Shown here: piece by piece, positions 23,205 to 61,069 of the stretch
How positions within the stretch are numbered: the stretch's first letter is position 1
Layout: every line of letters begins with the position of its first letter
NCBI GenBank assembly: GCA_020747065.1
Contig: JAGMVK010000027.1
Span: 62,001-126,000, forward strand
Source of the DNA: Cadophora sp. MPI-SDFR-AT-0126
Lineage: Eukaryota > Ascomycota > Leotiomycetes > Helotiales > Ploettnerulaceae
DNA length: 64,000 bases
Reading direction: 5' to 3'
Program-made: the position numbers and the translations under genes
Notes under the pieces: generated by a model
What the model was told of the DNA's origin: nothing
Database searches by the model: none
What the model saw: the letters and a program-made list of their open reading frames with translations, nothing else

Positions 23205-23960
23205 GTCTACCATGATGCACCACGGGTGGGTCATGGTTCATTCCCACCTACTTCTTGATGGTTGCACCCTTGACAACCCCACTCCACAATTTTCCCTTCG
23301 GGTGTGGGTCAGCAAGGAGGTACACCACCATCTCTTTGGGGATGATGACTGTTTCGAAGGTGGTATGTCTAAGTTTGGCTCATCGCCTTGGTTTGAAGAG
23401 GACCATTTCAGGCTCCTCGATGTGTGACCAGACTATAAGTTCAGAATCACCAAAAGACAACCTTCATCTAGGTAATGCGCAAGCGGAATTGAATACACCT
23501 GGACTTTAATGGATACCACAGACGTGAAACTCAACGACCGGAGGAGAAGGAAAAAAAGAGAGAATGAGGGAATTAATAATAGGCAAAAAACCTTACTTCA
23601 TAAGGCTCATGAATTGGGGGAATTTGAAGGTGTCGAAGTACTAGTGATCGTCCAGAAGCATGGCAAATATACGACTTACGTATCCGAGGGCTACATATCA
23701 CGTCAGCCATCGTTCAAAGAGATAGTAAGTCGAGTGATGGCTTGCTTGAGCTACACGACAGTGCTAATGTTCGCCTAGCAAACCGCCTATCCCCTTCCGA
23801 AGAACTTTCGACCTCAAGATATCGAGAGCCGCCGTCCCAAAAGCAAGAGAGGAGGGAAATTATCAGAGAAGAAGAGCCAAGGAGGTAGTGGGACAACCTA
23901 TGATTGGATAGAAGATCAAGAAGCTTCGAAAAAAGTAACCCAGCCGCATATGTAAACATT
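23205..23960 (+). repeat. MADS-like duplicon, copy 1
   Basis: The gene at 23509 plus about 300 bp of upstream sequence (TTGATGGTTGC, CCCCACTCCA, TTTCAGGCTCCTC.ATGT, GACTATAAGTTCA) matches 60290-61010. The duplicated unit is therefore larger than the coding region and retains the intron, so it spread as DNA rather than by retroposition. Confidence 0.65.
23509..23955 (+). CDS. small MADS-box-like protein, copy 1
   Basis: Exons 23509-23724 and 23779-23955, with a 54-bp intron (GTAAGT to GCCTAG), 130 residues. Exon 1 encodes RRRRKKRENEGINNRQKTLL, HKAHELGEFEGVEVLVIV and HGKYTTY. This follows the core of a MADS (SRF-type) DNA-binding domain (N.R...L.KKA.EL....D.EIALII....G....), lacking only the first few residues of the canonical GRGKIEIKRI arm. 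Exon 2 gives a conserved QTAYPLPKNF..QDIE.R segment and a basic tail. Two more copies occur in this window (39818, 60652). All three keep the exon-1 frame despite roughly a quarter of bases differing. A DNA-binding regulator is inferred. No MEF2, SAM or K-box domain follows. Confidence 0.7.
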
Positions 23961-24391
23961 TGTACCTACAGTTCCTGCCGCAAACATAATGCATGGTAGC
24001 TTCCCTGCATCATCCCGCCTCTAAAGCCCATGACTTTCCCTAAATTTACATGTATGTGTATGATAAAAGTCAAACCGGATTGACACCTAGGTCGGATCAG
24101 AGGGAGGACTTGAACCAGGGAGCAATGAGGAAATCACCGGAAAAGGCAATGAGGCCCGAATGACACCCACCTGTATTTTTCACCAATCCCGCTACCTCCC
24201 TTCCCGAGCTGCTTCTTACATCTTCAAAAGTTACGAGTTAAGACATTTGATCACTCAGTACACAGAACCTTCTCATCACACAGGTCCGTTCCATGACAAT
24301 TTCCCATCACAGCTCGCAGAATGTTCCCCTCCAACAATGCCCAGGTCATTTTCTTTACTTTCGAAGTCCACCCCTCTGCACTGCTCATTCT
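23961..24391. other. no gene recognised
   Basis: Noncoding between the MADS-like gene and the BTB relic. Confidence 0.4.
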
Positions 24392-25060
24392 TCAACTGCC
24401 ATCGCCCCCGTATATCCCTCCCACCTCTACAAGTCCCTCATCTCGAAACACACTGCTCTCTTCGGGGGCCTGTGACGCACAGGAGTCAAAACTCGACCAT
24501 GAATCAGTGAACGGACATTTGAAGTGGTCTTTCCATTCCCAGCCAACTACTTCCGAATGGTCGTGAAAGCGGCAGGCACCTCCCCAGTCTATATCCGACT
24601 CCCTTGAGGAAACCCTTTGTATTGTCTGAAAGTAGTCCCATCCAAACTCAGCTAATTCCTCGAAGACTGGCTTCCATTCTGAGTATTCACCATATTTTCT
24701 GGTTGACGGGTTACGATGTCCCCAGTCGTTGTCTTCCGGTATGAATGTAAAGCCATGGGAGCACAACTCCCTAAGGGTTGACCCGGGAGGTACGCCCCGG
24801 TAGACTTTACAGATTATGTCGGGGGTAGGTATCTACTTGCTTTTGCCAACTGCGGCCCTTATAGCATCGGAGGTTTGGTTTTTGAGGTGATGAACAAGAT
24901 AGATCTCGCCGAAAACGGCAAGATCGATCAGAGCATCCACAGATTTCGATCCGTCCATACTGGGCTCGTAGGCGCAGACCCAGACCGCTGCATTAAGGGA
25001 GTATCTCGGAAATGCAATAGTCCGACCATGATTCTCTTGCGCCATGAATGGAATTACCAC
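24392..25060 (-). pseudogene. BTB/POZ domain protein, C-terminal part with in-frame stop
   Basis: The minus-strand frame reads ALIDLAVFGEIYLVHHLKNQ then TSDAIRAAVGKSK, a stop (TAG at about 24835-24833), then IPTPDIICKVYRGVPPGSTL and LRELCSHGF without any frame change. This is the second half of fungal BTB proteins (pattern LWVLADRLLMP.LQN..ID.I, IP....VYENTPEGSPLR.L). One amber codon, plausibly CAG to TAG, interrupts it, and the BTB core that should precede it is missing. The 5' end abuts the small gene ending at 25076. The reading is a truncated pseudogene. A stop bypassed by a tiny 32-nt intron is unlikely. Confidence 0.6.
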
Positions 25061-25075
25061 CTCTGCTCCAGGAGA

Positions 25076-25642
25076 TCAAGCCTTCATCTTAAACACAAAT
25101 AAAATGCAAGACGCATTGCCGTCACCATCTGACCTCAAGCTTGATTTGCCAGCCATATATATGATGGATCCAGTGTTCCAGTCAATCACAGAGGAAACCC
25201 CAGACGCATCGCGGTATTCGACCTTTGGATTGCCATCCTTCGTCAAGGGATTGCCATCCTTCGTCAAGGGGATCGTAATCGCCGACGTATTGTCAGGTAT
25301 CCTGAATGGTCCTCCAGTGAGGACAAATGTCGTGGGAATCCAGTGCAGTTCGGATTTTCGAGGGTCGAAGACTTGGGCGGTACAGGATTCAATTTCAATC
25401 TGTTCACATACATTAGCCCAAAACTGCCAAAGGGTTCTGCTTTAGCCAACCATTTCTTTATAGCTTCTACCTAATTCTTTCTGTACATCTTCGTATTGGC
25501 TTGTAGACTTGAGCTTGGTAACGGGTTTGTCCTGGGCAGAAATTGATTGCTCGCGGCAAACGGTAGTAGCGATCTCAGCCAAGCGCCGAAATTCATCTGT
25601 TGGTGGCCAAATTGCCAGAAGCCGTTCCCTGCTAGAAGACAT
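25076..25642 (-). CDS. small conserved two-exon protein, family copy P
   Basis: Exons 25642-25451 and 25399-25076, 171 residues. Paralogue of 10375-10925: the 64-codon first exon (MSSSRERLLAIW, ISAQDKPVTK, DVQKEL.RSY) and the second exon (QVFDP, FVLTGGPFRIP, KDGNPKVEYRD, IDWNTGSIIYMAGKSSL, FKMKA) align throughout. The intron is 51 bp with the same GTTGGCT donor. It differs from copy G by a tandem 21-bp in-frame duplication giving LTKDGNP twice (25227-25265). The end lies 16 bp from the BTB relic, so the duplicated block seems to have been inserted into or beside that gene. Function unknown. Confidence 0.7.
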
Positions 25643-25887
25643 AGCAGATGCATACCTTCTAAACGTTCAAGGTTGAGAAAGATCGAGTGTTCTGGTCGAG
25701 ACCGGTAGCAGTGGTACTCCGACGTGGCAACCGTATGAAGCGGGAATTTTCCGCCTTCTTGGAAAGCCACGTGACCGATGCCTTGGTGATGGAGAGTTGA
25801 GGAATGGGAGGGGGAAACATCTGGAAGAACCACTCGGTGATGTGGGATGATCGATTTGGGTCCCGCCATTATTTTGCTGATATTCCA

Positions 25888-26264
25888 CCTGGATTGCACA
25901 CTCCGCCTGGATTGCACACCTCGCCTGGATGCACACTCCACCTGGATTGCACACTTCGCCTGGATTGCACACCTCGCCTGGATTGCACACTCCACCTGGA
26001 TTGCACACCTCGCCTGGATTGCACACTCCACCTGGATTGCACACTTCGCCTGGATTGCACACTCCACCTGGATTGCACACTCCGCCTGGATTGCACACTT
26101 CGCCTGGATTGCACACTTCACCTGGATTGCACACTCCGCCTGGATTGCACACCTCGCCTGGATTGCTCACTCCACCTGGATTGCACACTCCACCTGGATT
26201 GCTCACTCCGCCTGGATTGCACACTTCACCTGCGTTGCAAGTTTTACCTGGATTGCACATGGGA
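25888..26264 (+). repeat. 18-bp minisatellite, 21 units
   Basis: Units of the form CCTGGATTGCACACTCCA / TTCG / CTCG, with one unit (the third) 17 bp long and the second-to-last diverged. The unit length is a multiple of three and contains no stop in any frame, so it stays open in all six frames (for example CTLRLD, HTPPGL, AWIAHS forward; CNPGGV, CAIQVE, QSRRSV reverse). It lies 5' of copy P and 3' of the Zn2Cys6 gene. Confidence 0.95.
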
Positions 26265-26704
26265 GGAAGTCGCTTGTAGATAAGGAGGATCATGCCTGTA
26301 TATTGTGGTTGTACTTGAGGCCTGTGGGATTTTAGATAGATGTGTCGGAAATCACTCGCCCACCTTATAATCACTAGAGAAATGTCAGCTTCGCCACAGT
26401 CACTTTTAGCTGCTAGAACGCTCCCCGTGCTGTGGGGTAGACCAGCCTTCTATATCGAGCACTTGGGCATCTCACTTCATTCTGAAGGTTTAAGCACTAA
26501 CTCTAATGGCCTGACTGTTGGCTTTCCACGATGTGCAACAAAACTTGCGATGTTAGTGAAAGATGTTTTCGCCATGACCTGTCTGATCAACGTGTGATCA
26601 CCTTCGGAGGCGACACGACTTTCTAAGGTTAGAGGAGATGAAGTAGTTGATGGAGGTGTCCGGCATGCATATGTAGATTGGTCCCCCCTTTCCACAAACT
26701 GCTG

Positions 26705-29109
26705 TCATAGGCCATAAATAATGAGCCGTGGCCCGCTCCGTTCCATCTCATCTACCCAATCCACTGAATTCGCATCTCCCGTCTGTGCAACGGCAGCACT
26801 CTGCTTCTCATAGATAGTCTGCAAGAGCCTCCGTACATTATCGGTAATTCCTCCATACTCACGTTTTTCGACTTCGGCCATCAACCTCAAAGCCGTCTCT
26901 TTCTCTGTTAAATTTCGTGTACAGAAGCCGGCCAGAAACAGTGGGAATACGATGTAGCGCAGGTCACATTGTTGTTTGGAAAGTATTATGCTGATAGCGT
27001 GAAGAATTTCGGCGCAGCATGCCTTGATCTGGGCGTCGGTGTCGGGTTCTGGGTCGTGCAACTGCCCTGAATACATACTAGTATGTGTGTAGAGTATACA
27101 AACGCGGAATAGCAGATATGACTACTCTTGTCAGTTAATTCTTCGAATGTGAGAAGATTATGACGTACATGTTCTACCCATTCCAACACCCTAGGTGGAA
27201 GGTTGTTCGGAATCTGTAGCCAGGTCTGATAATCAGGGAAAGGAGATCTCCATTTCGATTGCAAATCGAATATCAGCTGTCGAAGATCTTGAATACGTTT
27301 AGATCGGTCCATATTACGTGTGTCGTCGAGGACATGGGCCGAACTCCTAAAACATCTTTCGCTGGCTTCTGCTCTCAAAGCTTTGCCTAGGCGACCAACT
27401 TGAAGTGCGATCAGGACCACCTCTTGAGTGATAGTAATGATTCTTGGGAAGTGTGCCTGCTCTTCGGGATATATCACTTGCGGCTGCCCGGCCTTTTCGG
27501 GTAGCAAGCATCGCTCTGGTAGTGGTAGCATATTTCGTTTGAGAACAAGCTCAACAAATATTCCCATTCCACTCGTACTCAAAAGTGCATAGACATCGAT
27601 ACAGGAGATTATCCAGATAATGAAGTCGAAGTGATCAATGCCATGTGCTTGTCGTCGCATGGAAACTATCCTTAGAAGTTGATCACAGTGGTGTTGCCAC
27701 ATAGCAGACTCCCGTGCAGCGATCTCGTAGAAAAGTAAGACTAGATGTGTCAACAGGGCACCGTCAGACTAGGGGAAAATCAGTATTATTTACCTTTGTA
27801 GCGACGCACGGAAGGGAATTGCACTTACGTAGAAATCTTGGGAGCTTTGAAATGTAGTCTGCAAAGCTGGGATGACCTGTTGATAATGCTCTAATGCATT
27901 GGCATCATGAGATCCTTTCTTGTGCGCTACACTTAAAGCTGAGAGTGCCATCAGCGCGTGGAAGAGCTGTCTGATTAGCAATTAGTTCTCTACCGTGCAG
28001 AGTCTCACTGACTGGTGGGTAATTTCGAGCCTGGACCTCAAATATATCCTCGTCGGCTTGGGACTTGCCAATCTTGAAAATCTGTGCTGAAATTGTTGTT
28101 CGATAATGATGTAGCAGCTCGGCATCGTGCCCTCCCTGGCGAGCAGCGTCGAGAAGAGACACCGTACCAGAATCAAAGCTGGCTCCTACTTGTAGTGCTT
28201 GTCTGCAGCTAGACATGGGTGAAATTGAAAGTGATACAAGGTTCGCCCTCGGTCGGTATGGCAAAAGCGCCGGACTCCGCAACGGGTCTTCGAAAGTCTT
28301 GAGGACCACCACCTATCGCTCGCATGGAAGGTCAGTTATCCAACTCATTTAAGTTTAGAGAGACATCAGGAAATTAGACATAAACTTTTGCCTGTATAGA
28401 CGAGACTCACATCAGGATCATCCACTTGTTCAATTATGCTGCCAGTGAGTGAAGTGGGAATATTATTATGCCCTTCACATTGCGAGTAGCCAGCACCCCG
28501 ATGCGTATCTCCAAGGGGTTCACCCCAATATTCAGGTAAGTCCGCAAAAGTCGCCAAATTTGCAACAACTACGAAGGTTCCAGGATCTCGCGACTGTGCC
28601 TTCTTCTCTCGCTCGCCGTCAGTGGTTAGGGTTGAAAAGGGAGGCATATCGTTTGATACTCGGACTTTTGGCTCTTGTGCCCATGCTGTATCTTATTAGC
28701 TTGATTAATCGAAACTAAGTATACTTAACGTACGATCCCAAACATGACTACCAGTCATATTGACTTGCAGTGTCTGTGCAAGTATTCTCGGCGTGTTGTC
28801 TTTGAAAGAGACTCTCGGTCCGTAATTACTAGTAAACTTTAGTCAAGAATTTTCATGCAACAATAAGCACAGTCGACTTACCAAGTACGGCTAAGACGCT
28901 GGCATTGCTGTGGCGTAGTCAGCAAAGAAATTCCACTACCTGGATGTCATCATACTCCACATGTTGGCTTTCCTTCGTCACATTTTACCTCTAGCAGGGC
29001 ATTAGTCAAAATAAGGGTCAAAGGAAGGGGAAACTAAGAATGTACTCCGAGTCCGACAAGTCCTGCAACCAGTCTTGCTTCTTGGAGGAAACCTGTTCCC
29101 CCTATGCAT
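26705..29109 (-). CDS. Zn2Cys6 transcription factor, nine exons
   Basis: Exons 29109-29046, 28990-28956, 28907-28882, 28828-28752, 28685-28411, 28312-28013, 27966-27829, 27768-27169 and 27061-26705, giving 623 residues with every phase matched. The first four exons assemble a complete zinc cluster: C15-x2-C18-x6-C25-x6-C32-x2-C35-x6-C42, in SKTGCRTCRTRKVKC then PTCGQCQRLSRTC. The C-terminal 420 residues match the fungal_trans_2 type regulatory domain (LFHALMALSALSVAHK, then LTHLVLLFYEIAARES, RYIVFPLFLAGFCTR, VRRLLQTIYEKQ). It binds DNA in the nucleus as a pathway or developmental regulator; the target is unknown. Two exons are only 26 and 35 bp, splitting the zinc cluster three times. No frameshift or stop, so probably functional. 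Confidence 0.85.
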
Positions 29110-30339: not shown

Positions 30340-30690
30340 CTCGAGAATCAGGATTGTAGAGGAGACGATTCTCGAAAGAAGTTGAGCTGTCGAGATGGCA
30401 TAGATGCGAGCGCTGAAGACTTCATGTCGGGTTGAGGCTGGTGCACTCAGCTCAGCGGCAGCCCCTTGGCGGAGGAGCCCACATTGCAGTTGCAAGCTGG
30501 CGTGGTGATTATATGAGCGGAACTTCGGCGAAACTACAGCAAAAGCATCATGGGAAAAATGGGGTGTGGCGGGGTCCCGTCCATTCTAGTGGAAAACTGT
30601 TAGCTCCGTCGGAGAAGTATTGAACCGCATGGCCGCCCTGCGCTACAGCAGCTATAAACCTCATGAAGGTCTCCGGGGGACTTTCCACAG
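30340..30690 (+). repeat. dispersed repeat, copy 2 (partner 430-965)
   Basis: Shares GGCATAGATGCGA, GACTTCATGTCGGGT and GCACTCAGCT blocks with the copy at the left end of the window, same orientation. Confidence 0.5.
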
Positions 30691-31110
30691 CGTTATCGAA
30701 GGCGACATTACTGTATGGTGAAGGAGAGAGAGCATTTGTACGACTGCAGGAAGAGATCATCCGCAGGTCAGCAGATTCGTCAATCTTTGCGTGGTGCCGA
30801 GGCGCACAGGGCGGGCTTCTGGCTCCCTCGCCAGCTTGCTTTGCGTCCCGTAGCAAAGTCATCTTATGCTCAGTTGGAACTGTCCATTCTTTCGAAAAGA
30901 CACATCGTGGTCTCAGGATGAAGCTACCTATTCTGAAACAGGGATCGAAAGGCAGCACTCTCATTGCAATGTTGATCTGTGATATGGAAGATATTTTAAA
31001 AGGGTGCTCTGTTTGCACTTAAAGGAGCAAATGACAGATCCCACAAACTCTGGCGAGACCACGGTGTGCTCGATCGAAAAGTGTCCACCAAAATGTGCCA
31101 AGTCTCAAGC
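30663..31110 (+). pseudogene. HET domain gene, C-terminal relic
   Basis: The frame carries LLYGEGERAFVRLQEEIIRR and SADSSIFAW, exactly the end of a HET domain (compare LLYGEGSEKAFRRLQEEIIK in the intact gene at 17081-19168), then HRGLRMKLPIL, which is the usual post-domain block. There is no upstream HET core in frame. The segment before it (30240-30660) has stops and only short fragments. Truncated, not functional. Confidence 0.75.
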
Positions 31111-39817: not shown

Positions 39818-40199
39818 ATGGATAGTGTAAACGTCAAGCGAAACGACGAGAGGAAAAGAAGAAAGAGAAAGAACGAGGGGATAAACAGGAGGAAAGAAAC
39901 CTTGATTAAGAAAGCCTATGAATTAGGGGAATGCGATGGTATCGACATAGCTCTGATCATTTGCAAGCATGGCCGATACACTACATATAGTTCCAAGGGT
40001 TACGCCTCACGGCTACCGTCTATGGCAGAGATAGTAAGTAAAGCGATTGCTTGTTTGAAATACACGACCAGTGCTGATAGTCATTTAGCAGACCGCCTAT
40101 CCTCTCCCAAAGAATTTGCTGCCGGAAGACATCGAGAAGCGCCTGTCTAAACAAACAAGAGAAAATAGATTGAGAAAGAATAACGGGGAAGATGACTAG
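39818..40199 (+). CDS. small MADS-box-like protein, copy 2
   Basis: Exons 39818-40033 and 40089-40199, with a 55-bp intron (GTAAGT to ATTTAG), 108 residues. The first exon is exactly 72 codons, as in copy 1. Core: RKRRKRKNEGINRRKETLIK, KKAYELGECDGIDIALIICK, GRYTTY. The intron sits after the same Glu-Ile codons and exon 2 starts QTAYPLPKNLLPEDIEKR. Of the three copies this has the most canonical MADS core (KKAYEL, then ALII). DNA binding is inferred from the family. Confidence 0.72.
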
Positions 40200-40738
40200 A
40201 CTATTTGCAAATAGACAATCAGAAATAGTCCGAAAAGGAAACTAAAACTATAGATGTGGACGAAGTCTCGGCGTCCGCTTCTCGGATTTGATACTACCTG
40301 CTGCAGCAAAGGTAATCCGCTGTCAACCTATAGATAGCAGCACCTGTAGATCATGTATATAGAACCCATACTTCTTCGTCCATATACACTTCCCGCTGTT
40401 GTATTCGTCAATTTCGGCGAGGATTGATCGTAGATATATTCGAGAATCAAGTCAGGTCATTTTTGGCGTTTCGCCCTATAGGCATTTGGTCTAGTATTCT
40501 GCTATTAGCTGGGTCCGTCGTACGAAAAGTGATATGTATCGACACCGGGATATACTGACAAGTATGGTCGCTTTCGCTGGTCCTGGTTGTGGAGTCGCTG
40601 TTCTGCTTCTCGATGTCTTCAATTGCTTGAGCGGCTTTGACGAATCTCCTTTATGAGCTACCCCTCCTTTCTTCATCGTCCTCCCAGGGAATCGCCTTGG
40701 CTCTTATCATCCCGGTATCAACGTAGCCAGTCTCTCTT
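40200..40738. other. no gene recognised
   Basis: 3' flanks of two convergent genes. Confidence 0.4.
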
Positions 40739-41676
40739 CTAGGCGGAGAGAAAGATATAGAGCGCAAAGATTGAGAGGAGAGACGTCGCCCATAGTAACT
40801 TCGTCGAGAGGCGCCCATGTCGTAGCTCCGGGCGAAGAGCTGAGCATGCAAAATCTGGCAAGACCTTTCTTAGGTCACACACTACCTGCTCTGCAACAGC
40901 ATAGCGTTCCGACCAGCAGCGTCTAATAATCTCGCCCAACCCCGGTGGTGAGAGCTGTTGTAGATCTGGGTATGTGTGACTGCGAAACAACGCAGCGATT
41001 TCTTTGTCCGATTTCCCCTTGTAAAGCGTTTGCCCGGTGCTGATTTCGTACAAAGCCGTACCTAACGCAAATATATCATCCTTAACGTCAGGTTTCTCGC
41101 CCAGCCTCGGTCGTGGTCTGGCATATCGCGGTTTAGGAAACTCGAGAATCTCGCTGCCATCGATGCTGGATCCGCCAAAGTCGCACAGCGCAAGAGTGCC
41201 ATTGTCTTGGACGAGAAAATTATGGCAGCCCACATCGCAGTGAATAACGGTTTTCGAATGAATGTATGCTACTGCTTCTGCTACTTGTAAGAGCCATCTC
41301 AGTAATCAGGTCAGCATATAATATTGTATATAAATACAAAAGCTACTTACTCCAGTCTCCTTTGTATCCAACAAGGGGTATTGAGGCTCTTCTCCAATGT
41401 TCCTGCCTCCAGGAACTGCAGCAGCAGCACAGGCGTCGTTTGTCCTCCAGAGAGAAAGACTGCTTGCCGGTGGTATTTCAGAATAAGATGATGCTCGCCG
41501 AGTCGTTCGTATATCCTTTGTTCGATGCGTATGTGGTGTGATGCCTCGTCGAACGGAACCTTGACGGCAAGGCTGGTTCCAGCAATTCTGCTGACGCATG
41601 CGAAGGTACCATATCCGATAGCAGGGTCAATCTGATCAGGCCGGATTTGATCAAGGTCGAGTGCAACGCAATTCAT
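40739..41676 (-). CDS. small protein kinase with C-terminal hydrophobic tail
   Basis: Exons 41676-41351 and 41297-40739, with a 53-bp intron (GTAAGT to CTGAG), 294 residues. Kinase motifs: GYGTFACV glycine loop (21-28), AVKV with Lys39, catalytic loop HCDVGCHN (H128, D130, N135), DFG (148-150), then a DIFALGTALYEISTG segment of the C-lobe. HCD replaces HRD and the loop lacks the usual Lys two residues after Asp. Catalytic D and N are present, so activity is plausible but uncertain. The last 20 residues are hydrophobic (LLWATSLLSIFALYIFLSA), as in tail-anchored proteins. The frame is open upstream of Met 41676, but that Met best fits the kinase start. Small stand-alone kinases of this kind are common in fungal accessory regions. 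Confidence 0.8.
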
Positions 41677-41857
41677 GATCACACGGAGTAATGGAATCGT
41701 TAGGAATGAGTAAAGACGGTAGAAGCTCGTGGCTGAATCATAAGCAACACTCGAATTGGAATTGTTCAATTCGGCTGACTAAGACTAGCACATTTTGACC
41801 CCGCACAGCCTCAACAGCCTCGGCTCTCAGATACACAGCTCCCTTTCCTCTCTTCCC

Positions 41858-42166
41858 TTAGCGTTCGCCTCTGTCGAGCCTTTCCCTACAAATCGGACAC
41901 ATTTCCTCTTGTACGGACTTCGAACTCGACCCCATACCATATGGTGGATTCCATTGAACCGCTTCGTCGCAAAAGCCTTCCTCGTCCTTTGCTCGATCGC
42001 AGCTGACCTTAGTTCTTGTAGCATCATCCATCTCAGCGATTATTATTGGCCATCTCTTCTTCTTTTCCGTGATATGCGGACCATCGCTGAAATAACAGTC
42101 TCTATAGAGGACTAGGCTCATCGAATAAACGCACATTGCGAGGTCTGGAAGCTTTAACATTAACAT
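41858..42166 (-). CDS. ORF ending in a RING-like CPIC motif
   Basis: 102 codons ending EEMCPICRERLDRGER. EEMCPIC is how many RING fingers begin, but no further Cys/His ligands follow before the stop. Either a truncated RING gene or a missed 3' exon. Confidence 0.25.
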   Translation of the reverse strand: MLMLKLPDLAMCVYSMSLVLYRDCYFSDGPHITEKKKRWPIIIAEMDDATRTKVSCDRAKDEEGFCDEAVQWNPPYGMGSSSKSVQEEMCPICRERLDRGER

Positions 42167-43035: not shown

Positions 43036-43225
43036 CACCACGGTACTGTAAGTTGAACGGTACCGTACGTGTTAGAGTACTGTCAAGGGCACGGTGCCGT
43101 GAACAGTACGGTACCGTGGGCGTTACAGTACTATAAAAAGCACGGTAGTGTAAGTTGAACGGTACCGTGGGCTTTACGGTACTGTAAAGGCGCCGTGCCG
43201 TAAACAGTACGGTACCGTACATACC
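43036..43225. repeat. palindromic GGTACC repeat cluster
   Basis: Seven or so CGGTACCG or CGGTACTG/CAGTACGG elements within 190 bp, alternating with AAGTTGAA and TTTACGGTACTGTAAA palindromes. A lone similar element sits at about 55300-55350. Confidence 0.8.
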
Positions 43226-43712
43226 TATGAGAAGTGCCTCGGGGAGATGAAAACCATCAACATCCTGCGGGGCATTGCTTCATTTCTCAAACAAAGAAAT
43301 TACAGGCGACCAGAGAGGTAGCTGGAACATGGCGAATTGCAAAAATGAAAAGGATGCAAAGGATTGTTTTCGAATCCTCAAATTTAGAAAGACAATCTAT
43401 AACCCTAAGTTCTTCCTTGACCATCGTTCCCCGTGCACCAAATCAGCACGGCCCTAACATGACATATCTCCTCCGGCTCCTGGTCGAGTATAGAGAGCAA
43501 TTTTCGGGCGAGACCACCGTGGCGTTCGTGGGGTTTCGGAAGGTTTGAAGGAGTTGGTGAGAGTATAGAGGGTTTGTGTTGTTCGCTGCAGGTGCAGCAG
43601 TAGGTGAATGAAAAGGTATGTCGGACGTACTTGAGCATTGACAATGCTTAATTATCTTCCTTGTCCCTGAGGAACAACATCAGCATTGACGCCTAGCCGG
43701 CAATAAATTTGC

Positions 43713-48190: not shown

Positions 48191-49723
48191 GCCACAAATC
48201 TTATTATCCCGCCACCTACCTTTCCAGTCACGACAGTGAACCCCTCCCACGAGAGCGACTTAGATATAGCAAACACGAATAAGAGATCTATAGTCTATTT
48301 TGACGAACGCACAAACCTTGGTTCCCGGAGCTTGACGCCGTGCACTGTCTCTACGTGGCCTTTAAAGTGCTCCACGTGCTCGAGAACAAGCCCCTGAGAC
48401 TTGCACGCTGGGTGATAACACTCTATCTTGGCGTGTGGATCTCTTTCTTTGAGGTGAATCCGTTCAACGTGATCCATCATCTTCGCAGGGCGGCGAAAGG
48501 AGCCCATCCGCTCCTCATAGCTCTTCGATTCGTCGCCAATGCAAATCGGGCACTGGCTCTTGGCAAGGACAAGAGGGTATGGCTCGAGATCGGGCGATTC
48601 CTCCTTGATGAGAGGTGGCTGCGGTAGGGCAACCCGGAGTCGGTACCGTCGAGGCACTTCGCGGCGGCGGCAGAGAGCGACCATAAGACCGGCAGAGTGG
48701 ATCCGGCGCGCGACAATGTCCTGTGCGGTGATACCCGCGACATGAGTGCAGATAAGTTTGGCCAGCTGCGCCCGTTCGGGGATCTGATGTTCCACCACCG
48801 GCTCGATATACTCCTCTTCCTGCTGTCCACGGTTCTGCCTCTCAATATCTTCTAGCGGGCGACGGCGGAAGTAGTCGGCTCGGTATTCCTCAGAGATGAT
48901 ATTTTGCCGCCGAGTTCGGGCAATACCGATCTCCACGGTAAGACGTTGAACTTCCGCCTCGACCTCCGTTCCCTGGATCCTGTAAGCTCCAGCTTTTAGC
49001 TCCGCTCGCTGCTGCTCGAGATCGACGATACTTGGGTCGGGGGAAAGCGCTGCAAGAACGTCGTCCAGCGGGTGAACTAGAGCGCGAGGATCACGCATGA
49101 GACTCATATGAGTAAGCATGCGTAGGATGCCTCTGCAGATAGTCGCTCGAGGACAGCAGACAGGACGTCGAATAGTACCCTCTCATTGATATAGGCTCCG
49201 TTATACACCGCCGAGTTCGGGTTGTGTCGCATAACCTGATCTCTAACCGCATCCGTGGCAGTACCTAGACACAGAAGGCTCCATTAGCAGAGTGGTCTAT
49301 GCTTGTAATGTCACAGAGCACTTACGGTCGACGATATTGGCCGTCCCACGACGGAAGCAATAGCTGGTCAGCTTCTCTAGGAAACCCGCCGCAAGCCCTA
49401 GGCGGTTCAAGCAGTCCCTGAATTGAGAGTAGGTGAGAGCGAGTGTCGGAGAGGCGACCCCACTGTCAGCTAGCTTTTTATCTTGACGGAAAATTGGAGT
49501 CTTGAGTATTTCTTGCTTCCAGGATAGTGGCGTACATTGGACCGGGCCCCACACCTTGTGCTCAAAGACCCGCTCGACCGTAGTCAGGCTCGGTGCTTCG
49601 AAGGCCGCATCCGCAATAGCCAGGGAGACGAGGTGGGTAATCGGACAGAAGATTGGATCGTCTACTTCAGTGAAGGAGAATATCGTGCTTCCGTAGTTTG
49701 TCAGTTCGCTTTCAGAACATATA

Positions 49724-49807
49724 CTAGTCGGTCCACCTTCTGTGGCTCGGGGCTCGCTTACAGTCGGGGAAAGCAAATGTAGCAGGAAAGCAAAAGTGTC
49801 ACAACTC
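49724..49807 (+). repeat. left terminal inverted repeat (84 bp)
   Basis: Matches the right end base for base as reverse complement. Confidence 0.95.
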
Positions 49808-49906
49808 AGATACGCGAAGCGCGTTTTCCCACCAAAATCACGACTTTTTGAATCGCGATTGTGATCCACTACCTACCCATTTTCATTCAAGATTACGACC
49901 ATTCAA

Positions 49907-51978
49907 ATGCCCACTCGTAAAAATCGCTTCGGCAAGTACGCCACCAAGGCAGACTACGATATTGCTTTCGCAGAGGCTCGGAAATGGACTCTTGATAACC
50001 CAACGGAATCTCCAACGACTGCGGCACGAATATATGGTGTTTCTGAGCCTTCTTTACGTCAATCCATTCGTAGGGCAAAGATCAAGAAGGCGCAGGGAGG
50101 TATAAGGCTCGCAGATTCGCCAGAAAGTGGTGGCCATAACAAGGTGTTGTCGACGGCGCAAGAGACGGCGATTATTCAGTATTGCCACGAGCAATGGGAA
50201 TTAGGTCTTGGAGCTACGCATGCAATGGTTAAGTCAGCAATCGCTCATCTTTTGGCAGTACGAGCCTCTCCTTACTTCCGTGAAGCTCTACTGATATTCT
50301 ATAGTCTCAGAACCCTCCCAGATCAGCTCCCTCGAATCGATGGTACACGGCTTGGTTAAATAAGAACGCACAACTCCACACGCTTAAGACGAAACCTATG
50401 GAGGTTATTCGATTAGAATCACATACAGAAGAAGAGGTTAAGACGTGGTTTGAGAACCTAGGAATGGAGATGCGAAGGCTACATATTAATTCAGGAAAGA
50501 AGGTCTTGAATATGGACGAATCAGGCGTACGAGTTGGTTGCCCCTCTGCGGAAAAGGTCGTTGTACCTATAGCTGTTACAGAGCTATATACTCCAACTCA
50601 GGGAAGCCGTAAGACTGTTACAGTTACAGAGACTGTACGTGCCGATGGCCAGAAACCTTTGCCACCTTTTATAATATGCCCTGGAGAATATATCATGCAA
50701 AATTGGGTGTCTCCAAACCTCACGGGTGACGAGACAATCGTTTGCTCTTCAAGTGGATACGTTAATAACGACGTAATTATGAAATATGGCTATCACTTGA
50801 TCAAATATTCGCATGCCGGTCCAAAGAAGCCGTGGAAACTCTTGCTCTTAGACGGCCACGAATCTCACTACTTTCTGCCTTTCCAACTCCTCTTAAAAGA
50901 GAATCATATTCTTCCTTGGTACTTTCCAAGTCACCTGACGCATGCCCTCCAACCTCTAGATGTTGGTATATTTAGGCCGTGGAAACACTACCACTCTCTT
51001 GCGGTCAATTCGGCGTTGCGTAGCCTTGATCTTGAATATACCGTTACGTCTTTCTTCAGAGATCTGTCCCGGATTAGGGAAGAAACCCTGGTTTCCCATA
51101 CTATTTGCAATGCCTTCAAAGAGTCCGGAATCTGGCCGTTGAGCTGTAAAGCCGGCCTCGAGAGAGTACGGTCCTTCAGTAAGAAAAACCAGTCTTCCGA
51201 GCCTGAGCTTCCTGCAAACACTGCCTCCGAAAAGGTCTGGAGGACGAAGGCAGCAATTGAGTCGTTTATTGGTAGAGATCCGACGACATTCTCTGATAAT
51301 ACTGTGGAGGTCTTTAAAGAGGCAATGAAGGAAACGTCGGTACAACTAGAGAAGGCTTACTTAACGACTACAGAGCACGCTCTCTTACAACAAAAGCTAC
51401 GGGAAAGTGCTCGACGAAAGAAGACCTCTCGACGTACAATTAAAAGCAATGGCGGAGGTTCTGCACCTACAGTTGCTGAGTTACGAGTACAGATCTCTGC
51501 TAAGGCAGAGGCTGAACGAATTGAAGAACTCAAGAGAGCTACGAGACTACTTTCCCAGGCTATCGGAAAACACAAAGAATCTCTGAGAGTAGCGGGAGTT
51601 GCGGCCAGGAAGACGAATAAGGCTAGAAAGCAGAGGATACAAGAGATGGCTAAAGTAGGAGAGGTTATTCCACCTAATTCTGAGCTTTTGATACGGGAAA
51701 GAGAGCCAGACAAAGAGCCCAACGCTGTAGAATCTGCACTTCTAACTGAAGAAGGTCACCCGGCCCTGCTAGCCTCTAAATTGCAATATCAAGTAGAGCT
51801 TGATAACGACGAAGAAGTAGAGATATATACGCAGTCTAGTATAGAGAAGGCTTGTACTGAGCACGTGGAGTACGTCGATTCTTCTCCCATAGGCTCAGAA
51901 TACGCCGAAAGCTCTGGGGAGGATGATCAGGAGGATTCATTTGTTGCAGGAACCGATTATGTAAAAGTACCAAATTGA
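49907..51978 (+). CDS. Fot1/pogo-family transposase (DDE_1)
   Basis: Exons 49907-50257 and 50305-51978, with a 47-bp intron (GTACGA to CTATAG), 674 residues. N-terminal psq-type helix-turn-helix (TAARIYGVSEPSLRQSIRRA), then a CENP-B-type domain (TAQETAIIQYCHEQW). Catalytic triad in context: NMDESG (D188), LLLDGHESH (D300) and LQPLDVGIF (D336), spacing DD35D as in Fot1/pogo. The C-terminal 240 residues are charged and coiled (REKTSR-like basic block, acidic end). It cuts and pastes the element at TA sites. Reading frame intact, so the element is potentially autonomous. Confidence 0.92.
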
Positions 51979-52063
51979 TGTGGAGGATTTCATTTGAATA
52001 ATTGTTGCCGGCGTCATGGTTTTGGTGGGGTTTGCACTCAAATTAAATCCCCGATATTAACCC

Positions 52064-52147
52064 GAGTTGTGACACTTTTGCTTTCCTGCTACATTTGCTT
52101 TCCCCGACTGTAAGCGAGCCCCGAGCCACAGAAGGTGGACCGACTAG
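52064..52147 (-). repeat. right terminal inverted repeat (84 bp)
   Basis: Reverse complement of 49724-49807. Confidence 0.95.
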
Positions 52148-52253
52148 TATGGTAGAGAAGGGGTTCGTTGACTCACGGCTTTTGGCGTCTCGGACGTGGC
52201 TCAAATGACCATCTACGAAGATGGTGACAGCTCCGCAGCTCCGCCACCAGATT

Positions 52254-54845: not shown

Positions 54846-55674
54846 GGTTAAGGAATGGGTTTGATGGAATCGGGCAGGCGTAAGAGGTATCAATTCAGGG
54901 AGGAGTTGGAAAATAGGTGGTACAGCTATAAAATTCGTGTCTCATGTCCATTGCTAGCTTTTGTCTGATGTTTGTCTCGCTTGAGTCAAACTTTTGTTGC
55001 ACATCGCGCCCAATGTCTAAAGGCTTTCTGGTACAATGAAAATTCTCCTGACTTCAGGAGTAACTTAACTGGATGAAAATGCCTGCCGACTACCGCTTCT
55101 ATGAGCCATGGTTTCATTCCCTACTTCCATTCTCTATCCAAGAGCCACCTCTTGCCTCCCTCAACCACTCCTTACTGTTTCCGCTGCAACAAATGGCCTT
55201 TTAATTCATTTGGCTGACACATAGACTGTTGAGAGGTCTGCTTATGCCCGTATATATACGACAGTATTACTCTGTTGAATGGAGCCTTGTCTAGGCATAT
55301 ACGGTACCGTTGATCTTGCGGGGCTGTAACGGCCACAGTACTGTAAGCTGCACGGGAAAGTCGAGGATTCATTAGTGCGTCAAGCTGGCATTAGGGATGA
55401 CTATATTGATATAGCCAGCTATGATTGGGTTTTGGTAGAGCTACTAGGACAGAAGTAAAGCTGAAGGTGCTTCTGCGGTATTCAAATAGCAAGCCAGACA
55501 ACCACTACCTCGTCCTGTCCCTTCGTTGCTAGCGAGATGCAATACTTGCATTAAGATTGCAAGGTCTTGCCTCCAAACATAGCACAAAATCACCAGCAAG
55601 GCCGGAGAGAATTTAAAAAACGTAGTACGATACGGATAGTAATTTGATGATCTAGATATGAAATGGAACGCAGT
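54846..55674. other. no gene recognised
   Basis: 3' flanks of two convergent genes. One GGTACC-palindrome element near 55298 related to 43036-43225. Confidence 0.5.
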
Positions 55675-58274
55675 CTATTTTGTCGAACACACAAACCTTG
55701 GTTCGCGAAGCCTGATTCCGTGCACAGTCTGCACATGGCCTTTGAAATGCTCCACGTGCTCGAGAACAAGCCCCTGAGACTTGCACACTGGGTGATAACA
55801 CTCTATCTTAGCGTGCGGATCTCTTCCTTTGAGGTGACTCCGTTCAACGTGATCCATCATCTTCGCAGGGCGGCAAAAAGAGCCCATCCGCTCCTCGTAG
55901 CTCTTCGATTCATCGCCAATACAGATCGGGCACTGGCTCTTGCCAAGGACAAGAGGGAATGGCTCGAGATCGGGCGAGGGCGATTCCTCCTTGATGAGAG
56001 GTGGCTGCGGGAGGGCAACCCGGAGTCGGTACCGTCGAGGCACTTCGCGGCGGCGGCAGAGGCCGAGCATAAGACTGGCAAAGTGGATCCGGCGCGCAAC
56101 AATCTCCTGCGGGATGATACCAGTGACATGATTGCAGATGAGTTCGGCTAGTTGCGCCCGCTCGGGGATCTGATGTTCAACGACCGGTTCGGTATACTCC
56201 TCTTCCTGCTGTCCACTGTTCTGTCTCTCGATATCTTCTATCGGGCGACGGCGGAAGTAATCCGCCCGAAACTCTTGAGAAATAATATTTCGACGCCGAG
56301 TCCGGGCAATACCGATCTCTGAAGTAAGGCGTCGAACTTCCGCCTCGACTTCCGTTCCCTGGATCCTGTAAGCTCCAGCTTTGAGCTGAGCCCGCTGTTC
56401 CTCGAGCTCGACAATACGTGGGTCCGGGGAAAACGCTGCAAGAACATCGTCCGGCACGTGGACTGGCGCACGAGGATCACGCATAAGGCTCATGTGAGTG
56501 AGCATACGTAAGATTCCATCTGCAGAGGGTCGCTCGAGGACAGCAGACTGGACGTCGAACCGCACCCTCTCATTGATGTACGCTCCGTTATACACCGCCG
56601 AGTTCGGGTTGTGTCGCATGACCTGATCTCGAACCGCACTTGTGGCTTCATCTAGACAAAAGAAAGGCCTATTAGCATAGTAGTCTATACATGTGATATT
56701 ACAGAATACTTACGGTCAACGACGTTGGCTGTGTTACGACGGAAGCAACGGGAGGTCAGGGTCGCTTGGAGGCCTATTAAGAGTCCTAGAAGTTTTAAGC
56801 GGTCCCCGAATTGAGAGTAGGTAAGAGCGAGTGTCGGAGATAGAAGCACACCGTCAATTGCCCCTCCATCCTGACGGAAGATTGGAGTCTTCAGTATTTC
56901 TTGCTTCCAGGTCAATGGCGTACACATAACCGGGCCCGATACCTTCTGCTCAAAGACTCGCTCTACCGTGGTTAGGCTCGGTGCCTCGAAGGCTTTATCT
57001 GCGATAGCCAAGGTGACGAGATGGGTAATCGGACAGAGCATGGGGTTGTCTACTTCAGTAAAGAAGAATATCGTGCTGTCATGATTGGTCAGTTCGCTTT
57101 CGGAACATATGTTAAGAAAGAGTTCGTCAACTCACGGCTTCGGGCGTCTATCGGCTCCCTTATGGTGGGCCAGCTTGACTTCCATCGCACGCACATCCGG
57201 CTTTCCCGCTACAGGGTTCCGCACGACCAGGAGGCGGACGTCTTCGTAGCAAAGCGCGTTGAACTTCCTGAGTTCCAACCCAACGTCGCTCATATTGACA
57301 TCGTCATCAGAGTCATCACCATCGTCCTCAGAGTCCAAGTCGGCAACAGCGCTATCATGGTCGTTATCGAAGCTTGTGTCGGTCCCAGCGCTGATTTCAA
57401 TATCTTCGAAGGCTCCATCCTTCACTGGTCCAGCGCCGGCATCATCGTCCTCAAGGCCGGGCCACCGCTGCTTCTTGTTCTTCTTCTTCTTCTTCGTTTT
57501 TGCGTCGACCAGCTCTGCAGGCCGGCATCCTGTGGTGAAGAGGATAAGCAAGATTAGTGGGAATTGGACACGTTGCCGCTCCGTGGAGAAGGTAGAAGTG
57601 TCGCGTGCCCAGAGGTAGATAAGCAGGAGTAAGAGTTCGTCTATACTACAGACAGGCTTCTCCACGACCGTGATGTCAAGATCGAAGTCTTTTGTTAGGG
57701 GACCGTAAATGTACTACACGAACGTTAGCACCCTTGTATTACGATGAGAGGATGAGATAAAGGAGGCCCTTTACCGCGAGAACCTCTTTTGCATCATTGG
57801 TATCCATGTGGCGGCCGTTCTCTCGGTTGAAGAGCATCTTGAGCCGTAGATAATATTGGTGGACTGTACTCCTCTTCTTTACCCGACCCACCTCGCAGAT
57901 GTGAATGCAGAATGTTATCGCGGTTCCCTTGGAACAGTCACGGATTATCGAGCGCCAGGGCGGGTTCTTGGGTAGGCCGGCACAGAATCTAGTGCAACTG
58001 TTAGTCTAACGACGTACTTCTGGTCGAAGGTCAAGCATTTGCTCTCTTACCTGCTGAACATGTCGATAATGTCCTGGAGGTTATCTTTCGTTTTATCGGA
58101 ATAGTTGCGCTTGACGGTCGTGTTGTTATGTTGGTCGATCAGTTTCTGGAGACTTTCGGGAGAGCGTGGTTGGATCTTCGGTTTAGGACGACGACGTTCA
58201 ACACGATCACTGATGCGTGCGATATTCGGCTGCGAGGTTGGGGGATTGACTGTGGCATGGTTCCTTGCGACCAT
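55675..58274 (-). CDS. DUF3435 (FluG/C2H2-type) tyrosine recombinase-like protein
   Basis: Exons 58274-58051, 57988-57775, 57713-57136, 57075-56714 and 56651-55675, 784 residues, all phases exact (introns GTAAGA, GTAAAG, GTGAGT, GTAAGT). Recombinase-like landmarks: TTGCRPAELVDA with R210 (box I arginine), CFRRNTANVVD (R451/452), RDQVMRHNPNSAVYNGAY (R472, H473, candidate nucleophile Y480 or Y484). Between box I and the next block is a low-complexity insert (KTKKKKKNKK then a Asp-rich stretch). The C-terminus has Cys/His clusters (CPICIGDES, HVERSH, CYHPVC, HVEHFKGH) like two C2H2 fingers. Relatives include Starship captains and many domesticated or dispersed fungal genes. The residue FRRN replaces the FRRG of the dead copy. 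Probably encodes a full protein; activity unknown. Confidence 0.85.
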
Positions 58275-58435
58275 CGTGGAGGGGGAGTCGTTTGGTCTTG
58301 TGGTGAGGTGGTCGAGAGCAGAAGGTTACCGGGCGAGGTGCTGAGTCGAGAGGGGAGAGAAGGGAGAAGGGGGATGAGAATGAAGAAGGTACATATGTGA
58401 GCAGAACGATGGGCGGTGCCATGGTGAGCATTTAA

Positions 58436-58459
58436 GGCCCCCCCAAAACGGGGGGGGGT
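58436..58459. other. C7/G9 homopolymer hairpin
   Basis: CCCCCCC AAAAC GGGGGGGGG, able to fold back on itself. Lies between the recombinase start and the PHD gene. Confidence 0.7.
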
Positions 58460-58555
58460 ATGAAGTCAGGAAATCGAGAACTGGGATCAGAGGAACAGAA
58501 GAGAGGAAGAGGTAGGTCGATGGTGGACGCATGCGAGGATTAGCCGCCAGGCGCC

Positions 58556-60112
58556 TTGGACCGCGCCACACGTGATGGATGGGTGGGTTGTGGAGGGGTT
58601 CGAGCCCGTGTAAAACAGCGACCAAACCCGCCGAAAACAGCAGGTCCAACACCACAACCCTGGGTAATAACTTTAGGTCACTGGTGCCCTGCCTGTCAAG
58701 AAGACCATGGTGATGGATTTACTAAAGACCAAGATATCGAGTGGTTTGTTAGCCCATTATGAAACAAGAAGCTTCGTATAACTTAGGCTAACTTCCTCTC
58801 AGCAAGAAATGTGGTGTTACTTTCAGACTTTTCGTCCCTCAAGCTTCGACCAACTTCGTCTCAAGCAATGTGCCAATCATTCCTGACGTCCCACATCTAT
58901 CAAACGCCGAGGAACTTTCAGCTCGCCTCGATAGAACAAATATCGGCCCGCTAAAGCGAAAGCGGCTCCAAGATGAAGCCGACGAAATGGCTCTATTTCG
59001 GCGCGTAAGGATCAGGATTTCTTTGACATTACCGTCTCAGGAGTCCCGTCCAGGCTCAATAAGAAGAGGTTCCACCGATGCAACGTCTATAAGAGAGCTT
59101 TCTCCCATTCAGAGCCTTGAGATAGCCAAGGAGGCTTCCGATGAAGAAGAACCTTACACTATCAAGTGTATATGCGATTTCTATGAGGACGATGGCAATA
59201 CTATATACTGCGAGACGTGCGATACTTGGCAGCATATCGAATGTTTCTATCCCGGAAGAGTCGAAGAGGCGTCGAGGGACGATTTTGAACACTCGTGTGC
59301 TGATTGCAAACCGCGACCTCTGGACCGTCGACAAGCAAAGGAACGAGGGATAAAGTTATTAGGCAGAGCACAACATGGTACAGACACCATCGAACCGGCA
59401 GATAAGAAAGAATATGACGACGGTGATGGTAGATCGATATCTGGTTCCGTCAGAAGCAGGTCTCACAGTCGCGATTTGACGCCTCCTCACGGATTCAACG
59501 AATCGAACGGTATTCTCACAAAGCTTTCCGATCGTGAGAAGAGGAAGTTAGCAAGCCTTGAAGAATCGTTCCGGAAGATGGAGCAAGGTCAACCACCTCG
59601 AAGAAAATGGACGCATTCTTGAAGCTTGATACGACAATAAAGCAAGATCTTGCCGCTGGTGTCAGAGCTGAGCTCGAGGAGGAAGACCTGAGGAACCCAC
59701 ACGGGAGTCGCAAGAATACTACATTGACTATTGTCATAAGGGCTTGAAGGAACAGATGAGTACTCTGTCCTCCCTCCTTCCACGGATGATGGCAGATGGC
59801 CCCCCATCAACCTGGCTAGTGATCGAGATAGCTGCGCGTCACGAATAGCCCAATCACTCGTTTGAGGAACTGTTTAAGCCTTCCGAATTTTGCGATCCGT
59901 CAAGATCTGACAGTCTTCTTGTTGACTGTCAACTAGATGTGATCATCGACCCTTCGCTCGAGCAGCCCACAGCAACGGTTGATCCTGAACAGGCGGACGC
60001 CGTCCACTCTCCACCAAATGACAGGGAGGTGTTTGCTCTCTATACTACGCTCGAGGACGGTGGTTCCGAGGATTCGGCGTGCTCTTCCCCAACTAGTGGA
60101 ACTAATAGTTAA
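58556..60112 (+). pseudogene. PHD-finger gene, 5' start and 3' frame doubtful
   Basis: Exon 1 (to 58743) encodes WCPACQEDHGDG and, across a 59-bp intron (58744-58802, GTTTGT to TCTCAG), continues CKKCGVTFRLFVP. Exon 2 runs to 59622. The PHD finger reads IKCICDFYEDDGNTIYCETC then DTWQHIECFYP and HSCADCKP, with the full C4HC3 ligand set; such proteins bind histone H3 tails in chromatin. No in-frame ATG exists upstream of exon 1, so the 5' end is missing or elsewhere. After residue SFRKMEQGQPPR the frame stops, while the next coding pieces (DAFLKLDTTIKQDLAAG at 59608-59745; NHSFEELFKPSEF to 60112) are out of phase. I call it a probable decaying gene; unrecognised introns are the alternative. Confidence 0.55.
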
Positions 60113-60289
60113 AGCTCAGGCTCTCTTCGCCTCCCAGGGCATTGCGTCTTGATGGTTCTCAAACTGAGCTACCTGCAAAGAAATCTAACTCGCCCCATAG
60201 GCGGCTAAAGAGGCAGTACCAGCTGCCTCTATGGTGAACATCTACCTACTGTTTTTTTTGGCGGTGAAATGAGAGCCCACAAGGATAAT

Positions 60290-61069
60290 CACGAGTGGGT
60301 GGGTAGATCATCCCCCTCTTGTTTTTGATGGTTGCGATCTCGGTAATCCCACCCCACATTCTCCACTTAAATGTGAGTGCAACTCAGACGACGCATAGCC
60401 ATCTAGACAATGAGGGCAGCATTCCGCTTAAACTCACTTAGATGGTGCATAACCATCTAGAAACCGAGGGCCTCCCCCAGATGATGAGTGCCGTCTGGAG
60501 GATAGTAGGTTCAAATGTGGTTCCTCGTCGCTTTGGTGTTGAAAGGGCCAATTCAGGCTCCTCCATGTCGGACTATAAGTTCACAGTTGTAGCCACCAGT
60601 ATGGCATCCTTCATAGCTGACAACGTTGAACATTTAAGCGTGAAGGCTCTTATGGATACTATAAACGCTAAACTCAACGAGCGGCGGAGGAGAAAGAGAG
60701 AGAATGAGGGAATAAACAGGAGGAAGGACACATTGGTTAAGAAAGCCTTTGAATTGGGGGAATTTGATGGTATCGATGTAGTCTTGATCATCTGCAAGTA
60801 TGGCCAATATACTACGTTCAGATCCAAAGGCTATGTATCATGGCAGCCGTCATTCGCAGAGATAGTTGAGATACATGGTAATGTTGATACGTTTTAGCAA
60901 AGTACCTATCCGCTTCCTAAAAACATGCTACCTGAAGACATGGAGAATCGCCGTTCTAGACAAATGAGAAAATTCCCGAAGAAGACAACCGAGACTTAGC
61001 TGGACTCTCTCTGAAGGCTAGATGATTGAGAATCTTCCGAGGCGGGCAAAAACCATAGGTGTGGATACT
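60290..61069 (+). repeat. MADS-like duplicon, copy 3
   Basis: Matches 23205-23960 including upstream sequence. The tail (AAAACCATAGGTGTGGATA) matches 40240-40262. Confidence 0.65.
60652..60999 (+). CDS. small MADS-box-like protein, copy 3
   Basis: Exon 1 60652-60864 (71 codons: MDTINAKLNE, RRRRKRENEGINRRKDTLVK, KKAFELGEFDGIDVVLIICK, GQYTTF) is intact and very similar to the other copies. The intron position is conserved but the intron is reduced to 33 bp (60865-60897, GTTGAG to TTTTAG), probably too short to splice. If unspliced, the protein ends at 60897 after about 81 residues. Downstream exon 2 (60898-60999) is still open and reads QSTYPLPKNMLPEDMENRR. The frame also stays open 70 codons upstream of Met 60652, where translation of duplicon flank is possible but unlikely. 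Confidence 0.6.

What the first reader, a model, noticed from the sequence alone, without database searches (positions are those of the whole stretch)
23509..60999. Three-member family of tiny MADS-box-like genes with a second conserved exon
Copies at 23509, 39818 and 60652 share a 71-72 codon MADS-like exon, an identical intron position and a conserved YPLPKN..P.D.E.R exon 2, while flanking DNA diverges. Frame survives heavy base change, implying selection. No MADS accessory domain is attached. Canonical fungal MADS genes (Mcm1, Rlm1) are few, so local amplification is unusual.
Basis: partly seen in the sequence, partly recalled or inferred. Interest (0 to 1): 0.75.

Follow-up and report, generated by a model that had tools for sequence, protein, structure and literature searches.

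The report
Expanded family of tiny fungal MADS genes
A fungus carries many very small, two-exon MADS-type genes, three of them in this stretch; they are old, at least some look kept by selection, and they resemble small MADS regulators already shown to control growth form in another fungus.

Summary
The three genes (23509, 39818, 60652) each have a 71-72 codon MADS-like exon, an intron at the same place and a conserved second exon. Changes between window copies spare the protein (NG86 dN/dS 0.13-0.34); three of three simulated pairs have fewer amino-acid changes than chance.

The reading needs correcting. This is no three-member family: the genome (very likely Cadophora sp. MPI-SDFR-AT-0126) has at least 19 exon-1 places, 7 with stops. 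Two stop-bearing copies show a repeat-induced point mutation signature. The window copies fall in three clades: copy 3 groups with a C. gregata protein, copy 2 with proteins of other Cadophora and Leptodontidium strains, copy 1 only with its own paralogue and unnamed proteins. Copy 3 may be decaying: its intron is 33 nt, 20 nt shorter than its sister's.

The kind is known: Talaromyces marneffei MadsA is a two-exon, 109-aa MADS protein of an expanded family; sequence homology to it was not testable. So: new member of a known kind. Best mechanism (inferred): small DNA-binding dimers without an activation domain. Copies 2 and 3 keep most basic contact positions; copy 1 does not and may act by dimerising.

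The parts
23509..23724 (+). copy 1, exon 1 (72 codons, MADS-like core)
   Evidence: open frame; PF00319 E=1.2e-4, 21.9 bits (below cut-off 26)
23725..23778 (+). copy 1, predicted intron, 54 nt, GTAAGT...TAG
   Evidence: sequence; exon-2 offset
23779..23955 (+). copy 1, exon 2 with stop (58 aa)
39818..40033 (+). copy 2, exon 1 (72 codons, MADS-like core)
   Evidence: open frame; PF00319 26.2 bits alone, 25.2 when spliced, cut-off 26
40034..40088 (+). copy 2, predicted intron, 55 nt, GTAAGT...TAG
   Evidence: sequence; exon-2 offset; same junction in relatives P0079, P0123
40089..40199 (+). copy 2, exon 2 with stop (36 aa)
60652..60864 (+). copy 3, exon 1 (71 codons, MADS-like core)
   Evidence: open frame; PF00319 E=1.1e-4, 22.1 bits (below cut-off 26)
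60865..60897 (+). copy 3, shrunken intron, 33 nt, GTTGAG...TAG; if not spliced the frame stops at its end
   Evidence: sequence; offset (20 nt shorter than sister C15:3112)
60898..60999 (+). copy 3, exon 2 with stop (33 aa), frame kept
   Evidence: spliced in the C. gregata model P0109

Best explanation
These are small MADS-box genes of a family found in Leotiomycetes. Exon 1 encodes the MADS core (basic helix, two strands); exon 2 adds a conserved short tail (YPLPKN.LPEDIE.R) that may extend the dimer interface. Most likely (inferred) the proteins dimerise with themselves or each other, bind DNA through the basic helix and, having no activation domain, tune targets by occupying sites or recruiting partners. 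Shown: MADS homology of the family, two-exon layout, frame constraint, genome-wide family, RIP signature in two sampled dead copies. Inferred: transcription, DNA binding, dimerisation, role of the tail. Origin (inferred): old tandem or segmental duplications in repeat-rich stretches, spread apart by insertions, with surplus copies broken by stops.
For: PF00319. A 58-sequence profile (A3, of which 37 sequences are from the second subfamily) finds MEF2C at 7.1e-10, SEPALLATA3 1.6e-7, SRF 1.2e-5, MCM1 1.1e-3; copy 2 alone reaches only 0.0053 (MEF2D). NG86 dN/dS: copy 1/C15:49409 0.24, copy 3/C15:3112 0.30, copies 2/3 0.13, 1/2 0.22, 1/3 0.34. Amino-acid changes against random placement: 9 vs 15.7 (P=0.003), 11 vs 16.1 (P=0.017), 20 vs 29.6 (P=0.0007). 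Sister-pair exon 1 is 88.7-89.4% identical; 5' flank 80.7-80.8%, 3' flank 82.6-85.4%. Exon 2, first 20 codons: third-position changes exceed each of the other two in 10 of 10 pairs. Helix positions 16, 24, 25, 26, 32 are K/R in 130-138 of the 138-139 homologues with a residue there. A loose tail pattern lies downstream of 15 of 19 exon-1 places; it hits 12 of 483 control stretches. Six of 14 named relatives have the tail.
Against: No expression data. One structure model, of relative P0079, mean pLDDT 59, pTM 0.31; fold comparison unavailable. No spliced window copy reaches the Pfam cut-off. Copy 1 and its sister have N, Q, H at helix positions 24, 26, 31. Position 31 is itself not conserved in the set (K/R 12 of 86), and position 18 is K/R in only 85 of 139, E in copy 3. 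Exon 2 nucleotide identity in sister pairs (76.5-79.2%) is not above the flanks. Only 21 of 226 database relatives show the tail; many are unspliced metagenome frames or partial, but named models P0003 and P0004 enter another frame and P0147, P0187, P0204 end without it. Copy 3 may no longer splice.
Confidence: 0.7

Rival explanations
1. MADS-derived small proteins that act as dimer poisons (microProtein-like): they pair with Mcm1, RlmA or each other and block them rather than binding sites productively. Most plausible for copy 1 and its sister.
For: No other Pfam family in the spliced copies; copy 1 and sister differ at helix positions 24 and 26, basic in 137 of 138 and 130 of 139 relatives, and at 31, basic in 128 of 139, yet stay constrained against each other (dN/dS 0.24).
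Against: Copies 2 and 3 keep positions 24, 25, 26, 31 and 32 basic. Position 31 varies in the second subfamily. T. marneffei mads9 and MadsA gave ChIP-seq peaks (PMC12282165 passages).
Confidence: 0.25
2. The MADS gene is cargo or an internal gene of a transposable unit of about 1 kb, and the copies are element copies.
For: Homology stops near +440 to +500 after the ATG in the pairs aligned; the region is full of repeats; 7 of 19 places lie within 40 kb of a DUF3435 match.
Against: No long inverted repeats bracket the three units: the pairs found are 12-17 nt, none at matching edges. Introns are kept in the copies with an intact frame that I inspected. In C17 the 3' edge is a 7.6 kb gap after which homology to the window resumes (C17:659879 and 667473). 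C35 holds a copy-2-like, spacer, copy-3-like array in window order.
Confidence: 0.12
3. Relics: all copies are decaying duplicates with no present function.
For: 7 of 19 places have stops inside the match; C15:9389 is frameshifted; copy 3 has a shrunken intron; the C. gregata relative P0109 reads I where copy 3 has its start M.
Against: Copies 1 and 2 are open in both exons, and dN/dS is under 0.5 by every method that ran except one YN00 value of 0.50 (simulation).
Confidence: 0.12

Closest known systems
MadsA / mads9 family of Talaromyces marneffei (PMC4199489, PMC6090077, PMC12282165)
   Same: MadsA: two exons, one intron, 109 aa. Expanded family: 15 MADS-domain genes in strain PM1, ascribed to segmental and transposed duplication; the 2014 paper counted eight. 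Two of six clades are Mcm1 and RlmA.
   Different: Eurotiomycete (class recalled), not Leotiomycete. MadsA's sequence could not be fetched, so homology, including that of the tail exon, is untested.
RlmA / Rlm1 / MEF2 type (here C37:590766; label by my reading of the sequence)
   Same: MADS core.
   Different: Separate gene in this genome with the arm MGRRKIEIK and no YPLP tail noticed in the frames read; branches apart from the short family.
Mcm1 / SRF type (here C12:1045383-1045609; label by my reading of the sequence)
   Same: MADS core.
   Different: Separate gene split by an intron within the MADS box; the short family lacks its N-terminal arm.

Membership tests
MADS-box (PF00319) | Profile match over the curated cut-off | tested here: inconclusive
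   Copy 2 exon 1 26.2 bits vs 26, but 25.2 when spliced; copies 1 and 3 below either way. Relative P0079 26.3
MADS-box (PF00319) | Homology to solved MADS proteins | tested here: met
   Family profile to MEF2C 7.1e-10, SRF 1.2e-5, MCM1 1.1e-3; copy 2 alone 0.0053
MADS-box (PF00319) | Basic DNA-contact helix | tested here: inconclusive
   Positions 24, 25, 26, 31, 32 basic in copies 2 and 3; copy 1 changed at 24, 26, 31. That these are contact positions follows MEF2A as I recall it
MADS-box (PF00319) | Helix-strand-strand dimer fold | tested here: inconclusive
   Order H11-37, E45-50, E53-58 predicted for P0079 at pLDDT 59; no dimer modelled, second job not accepted
MADS-box (PF00319) | Binds CArG-like DNA | not testable with these tools
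   needs a binding assay
Canonical Mcm1 (type I) or RlmA (type II) | Is the genome's Mcm1 or RlmA gene | tested here: not met
   Genes that read as those two lie elsewhere and the short family branches apart
MadsA-type short MADS of T. marneffei | Two exons, one intron, about 100-130 aa | tested here: met
   130 and 108 aa predicted for copies 1 and 2; MadsA 109 aa. Splicing not shown by transcripts
MadsA-type short MADS of T. marneffei | Sequence relationship to MadsA | not testable with these tools
Transposable element gene | Terminal repeats or transposase in the unit | tested here: not met
   Only 12-17 nt inverted pairs, none bracketing a unit at matching edges

The most novel reading that the evidence does not exclude
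Helotiales fungi keep a large, fast-turning pool of MADS microproteins with a diagnostic YPLP tail exon. Some bind DNA and others, like copy 1, have lost contact residues and act by dimer poisoning. New members arise by duplication in repeat-rich stretches and are culled by RIP.
Probability: 0.2. Interest if true: 0.6.

Novelty: new member of a known kind. Interest (0 to 1): 0.4.

Why it matters
MADS regulators outside plants are usually described as one or two genes per fungus (recalled). An expanded short-MADS family in a second fungal class, with a conserved tail exon, would show that the T. marneffei case is not unique. It also gives a natural set of MADS proteins without accessory domains in which to test what the core and the tail do.

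Tried and rejected
Rejected: chance similarity (PDB profile, frame conservation). Rejected: recent local triplication. Weakened: a 1 kb mobile unit, first suggested by sharp homology edges, because. Linkage to DUF3435 (7 of 19 places within 40 kb, 4 within 10 kb) is probably a compartment effect; one search used 21 places that I collapsed by hand from the 42 matches. The binomial P printed there (13 of 19 places on four contigs making 6.0% of the genome) ignores clustering and is not used. A block duplication of the whole array: the interval between copies 1 and 2 gave only small C15 matches, that between copies 2 and 3 gave C15:1-1409 at 94%, so at most part of a block is shared. In one search one codon was dropped from two sequences to match copy 3's gap. 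The loose tail pattern missed 4 of 19 exon-1 places (two on C35, C38, C16:775351). The three-frame reading was done on loci of about 3 kb only.

Literature: no paper on such a family in Helotiales or Leotiomycetes was seen in the listings (5 papers; 16; 1; 20 listed of 115; 10 of 21); two searches found none. Only open-licence PMC papers are held, and the listed papers were not opened apart from those named here. Papers seen: PMC12282165 (section 6 and passages), PMC6090077 (section 17 and passages), PMC4199489 (passages), PMC5415576 (two passages). One search (strain name) listed 10 of 486 papers, none with the strain name; one search listed two that I did not open.

Mended after checking: exon-1 versus spliced Pfam scores, the count of relatives with and without the tail and a control for the tail pattern.
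Full report
Where it is. The window is G000:C20:62001-126000 of a 53.96 Mb, 38-contig genome. Contig C15 is 1,074,291 bases, the same as the contig of P0005, a protein of Cadophora sp. MPI-SDFR-AT-0126 whose sequence agrees with the frames read at C15:3112. The host is therefore very likely that Helotiales fungus (lineage); that it is a root endophyte is recalled.

The observation. The three copies are related. Exon 1 is MADS-like by Pfam at E 5e-6 to 1e-4, though only copy 2's exon 1 reaches the 26-bit cut-off and none of the three does when spliced. A profile of 58 family sequences reaches MEF2C, SEPALLATA3, SRF and MCM1 structures. The junction after E-I into the YPLP exon recurs in 13 of 17 organism-named relatives; of the other four, P0003 and P0004 enter the same stretch in another frame and P0031 and P0052 are partial (sequences). 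Eight further database proteins, without organism names where I read them, run into that other frame. In the second subfamily 6 of 14 named relatives have the tail. Copy 1 would encode 130 aa and copy 2 108 aa; copy 3 104 aa if its 33-nt intron is removed and 81 aa if not.

Selection. NG86 dN/dS on exon 1 is 0.13 to 0.37 over the 10 pairs among five loci (three window copies, C15:49409, C15:3112). LWL85 gives 0.22-0.49; YN00 failed for 3 of 10 pairs and gave 0.24-0.50 for the other 7. For the 3 of 10 pairs that I simulated, amino-acid changes were fewer than under random placement (P 0.003, 0.017, 0.0007; 1500 runs each). In the two sister pairs exon 1 is 88.7-89.4% identical, the 5' flank 80.7-80.8%, the 3' flank 82.6-85.4%, the copy 1 intron 81.5%. 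Exon 2 shows a third-position excess in its first 20 codons in 10 of 10 pairs, but its identity in sister pairs (76.5-79.2%) is no higher than the flanks, so constraint there is on a short core at most.

Genome-wide count. With copy 3 as query, 19 places score at E<=0.01 of 21 candidates; 12 have no stop inside the match and 7 do. Among the 12, C15:9389 is frameshifted and C38 and C16:775351 match only 34-37 residues. P0012 as query gave 26 matches, including exon-2-only places on C33 and C1. PF00319 gives 11 matches, among them genes that read as RlmA and Mcm1. Both counts are lower bounds by the tool's own note. Copies at C17:659424 and C23:1122801 differ from copy 2 mainly by C>T and G>A (141 against 27 reverse; 148 against 40), CpA being the commonest context (not corrected for base composition); their 3 kb surroundings have GC 0.38 and 0.32. 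The two sister pairs show little or no such bias (41:41, 48:40), C15:9389 a mild one (31:17). That is a repeat-induced point mutation signature; the other stop-bearing copies were looked at only by GC and dinucleotide indices.

Age. A tree of 227 core sequences, from 239 (13 typed from this genome, 226 database proteins; 5 short ones and 7 duplicates dropped), puts copy 3 with P0109 of C. gregata (0.966), copy 2 in a 7-member clade with P0123 (Cadophora sp. M221), P0079 (Leptodontidium) and P0128 (Cadophora sp. DSE1049) (0.88), and copy 1 with C15:49409 (1.0) inside a 9-member clade otherwise of proteins without organism names (0.957); some deeper nodes have no support. The splits between window copies thus look older than the species; for copy 1 this rests on unnamed sequences. 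The search is word-based and listed 120 of 473 hits, so other classes are not excluded.

How they came to lie together. On C35 an array with stops holds a copy-2-like gene, a spacer matching window 43046-43328, and a copy-3-like gene, in window order but about 1 kb apart. In the window the two genes lie 20.8 kb apart, with a DDE transposase element, two DUF3435 stretches and other matter between. The simplest reading is an old tandem pair pushed apart by insertions (inference). Each window copy has a sister on C15 at 81-84% over 530-800 nt (a C17 copy aligns to copy 2 over a longer stretch at 78%), and C15:1-1409 matches window 40595-42022 at 94%.

Mechanism. In the 139 homologues the helix positions that match basic contacts of MEF2A (recalled numbering) are K/R in nearly all, except position 18 (85 of 139); in the 87 position 31 is basic in only 12 of 86. 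Copies 2 and 3 keep 24, 25, 26, 31 and 32. Copy 1 and its sister read N, Q and H at 24, 26 and 31. Pfam finds nothing but SRF-TF in the three spliced copies at E<=1. The one structure model (P0079, a relative of copy 2) gives helix, strand, strand, short helix, helix, the last over exon 2, but at mean pLDDT 59 it is only suggestive. I infer small DNA-binding dimers, with copy 1 as a candidate dimer-only member.

Known relatives. In T. marneffei strain PM1 15 MADS-domain genes are reported, with growth of the family ascribed to segmental and transposition-mediated duplication (PMC12282165 section 6). MadsA has two exons, one intron and 109 aa (PMC6090077 section 17). Its overexpression drives mycelial growth at 37 C (PMC4199489 passages), its loss is said to speed the yeast-to-mycelium change (PMC12282165 passage), and MadsA and mads9 gave ChIP-seq peaks, while mads10 showed no clear role. 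Layout and history match; homology to MadsA could not be tested. Hence: new member of a known kind, moderate interest.

Noticed in passing
48298-49182(-), 49300-49872(-), 55678-56709(-), 57135-57713(-): Two stretches matching DUF3435 (PF11917), the superfamily of Starship captain recombinases (that link is recalled); 42 matches in the genome, many with stops.
   Followed up: partly
49721-52150: DDE_1 transposase element with 87-nt perfectly complementary ends; ten relatives of about 2.43 kb at 72-89% and shorter pieces elsewhere in the genome.
   Followed up: partly
40595-42022: Stretch with a protein-kinase fragment is 94% identical to the very start of contig C15.
   Followed up: no
25858-26307: 18-nt tandem repeat, open on the minus strand as a run of A-I-Q-A/V-x-C.
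   Followed up: no
17084-19171(-) and 61605-63998(+): Two HET-domain frames lie either side of the MADS region.
   Followed up: no
P0109 (C. gregata) against window 60652: The C. gregata gene model has I where copy 3 has its start M and is extended upstream; the start may be lost there.
   Followed up: no
P0003, P0004 and eight other database proteins: These run from exon 1 into the exon-2 stretch in another frame (SKI.IHSLK...); model error, frame change or intron read-through was not told apart.
   Followed up: partly
P0167 (Scytalidium lignicola): Gene model joins MADS exon 1 to what looks like a transposase-type helix-turn-helix segment (by eye); could be a fusion or a model error.
   Followed up: no
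L022, L023, L024, L027 (C16): A separate MADS subfamily on C16 lies in a shared repeat; one pair aligns over 2,010 bases at 81%.
   Followed up: no
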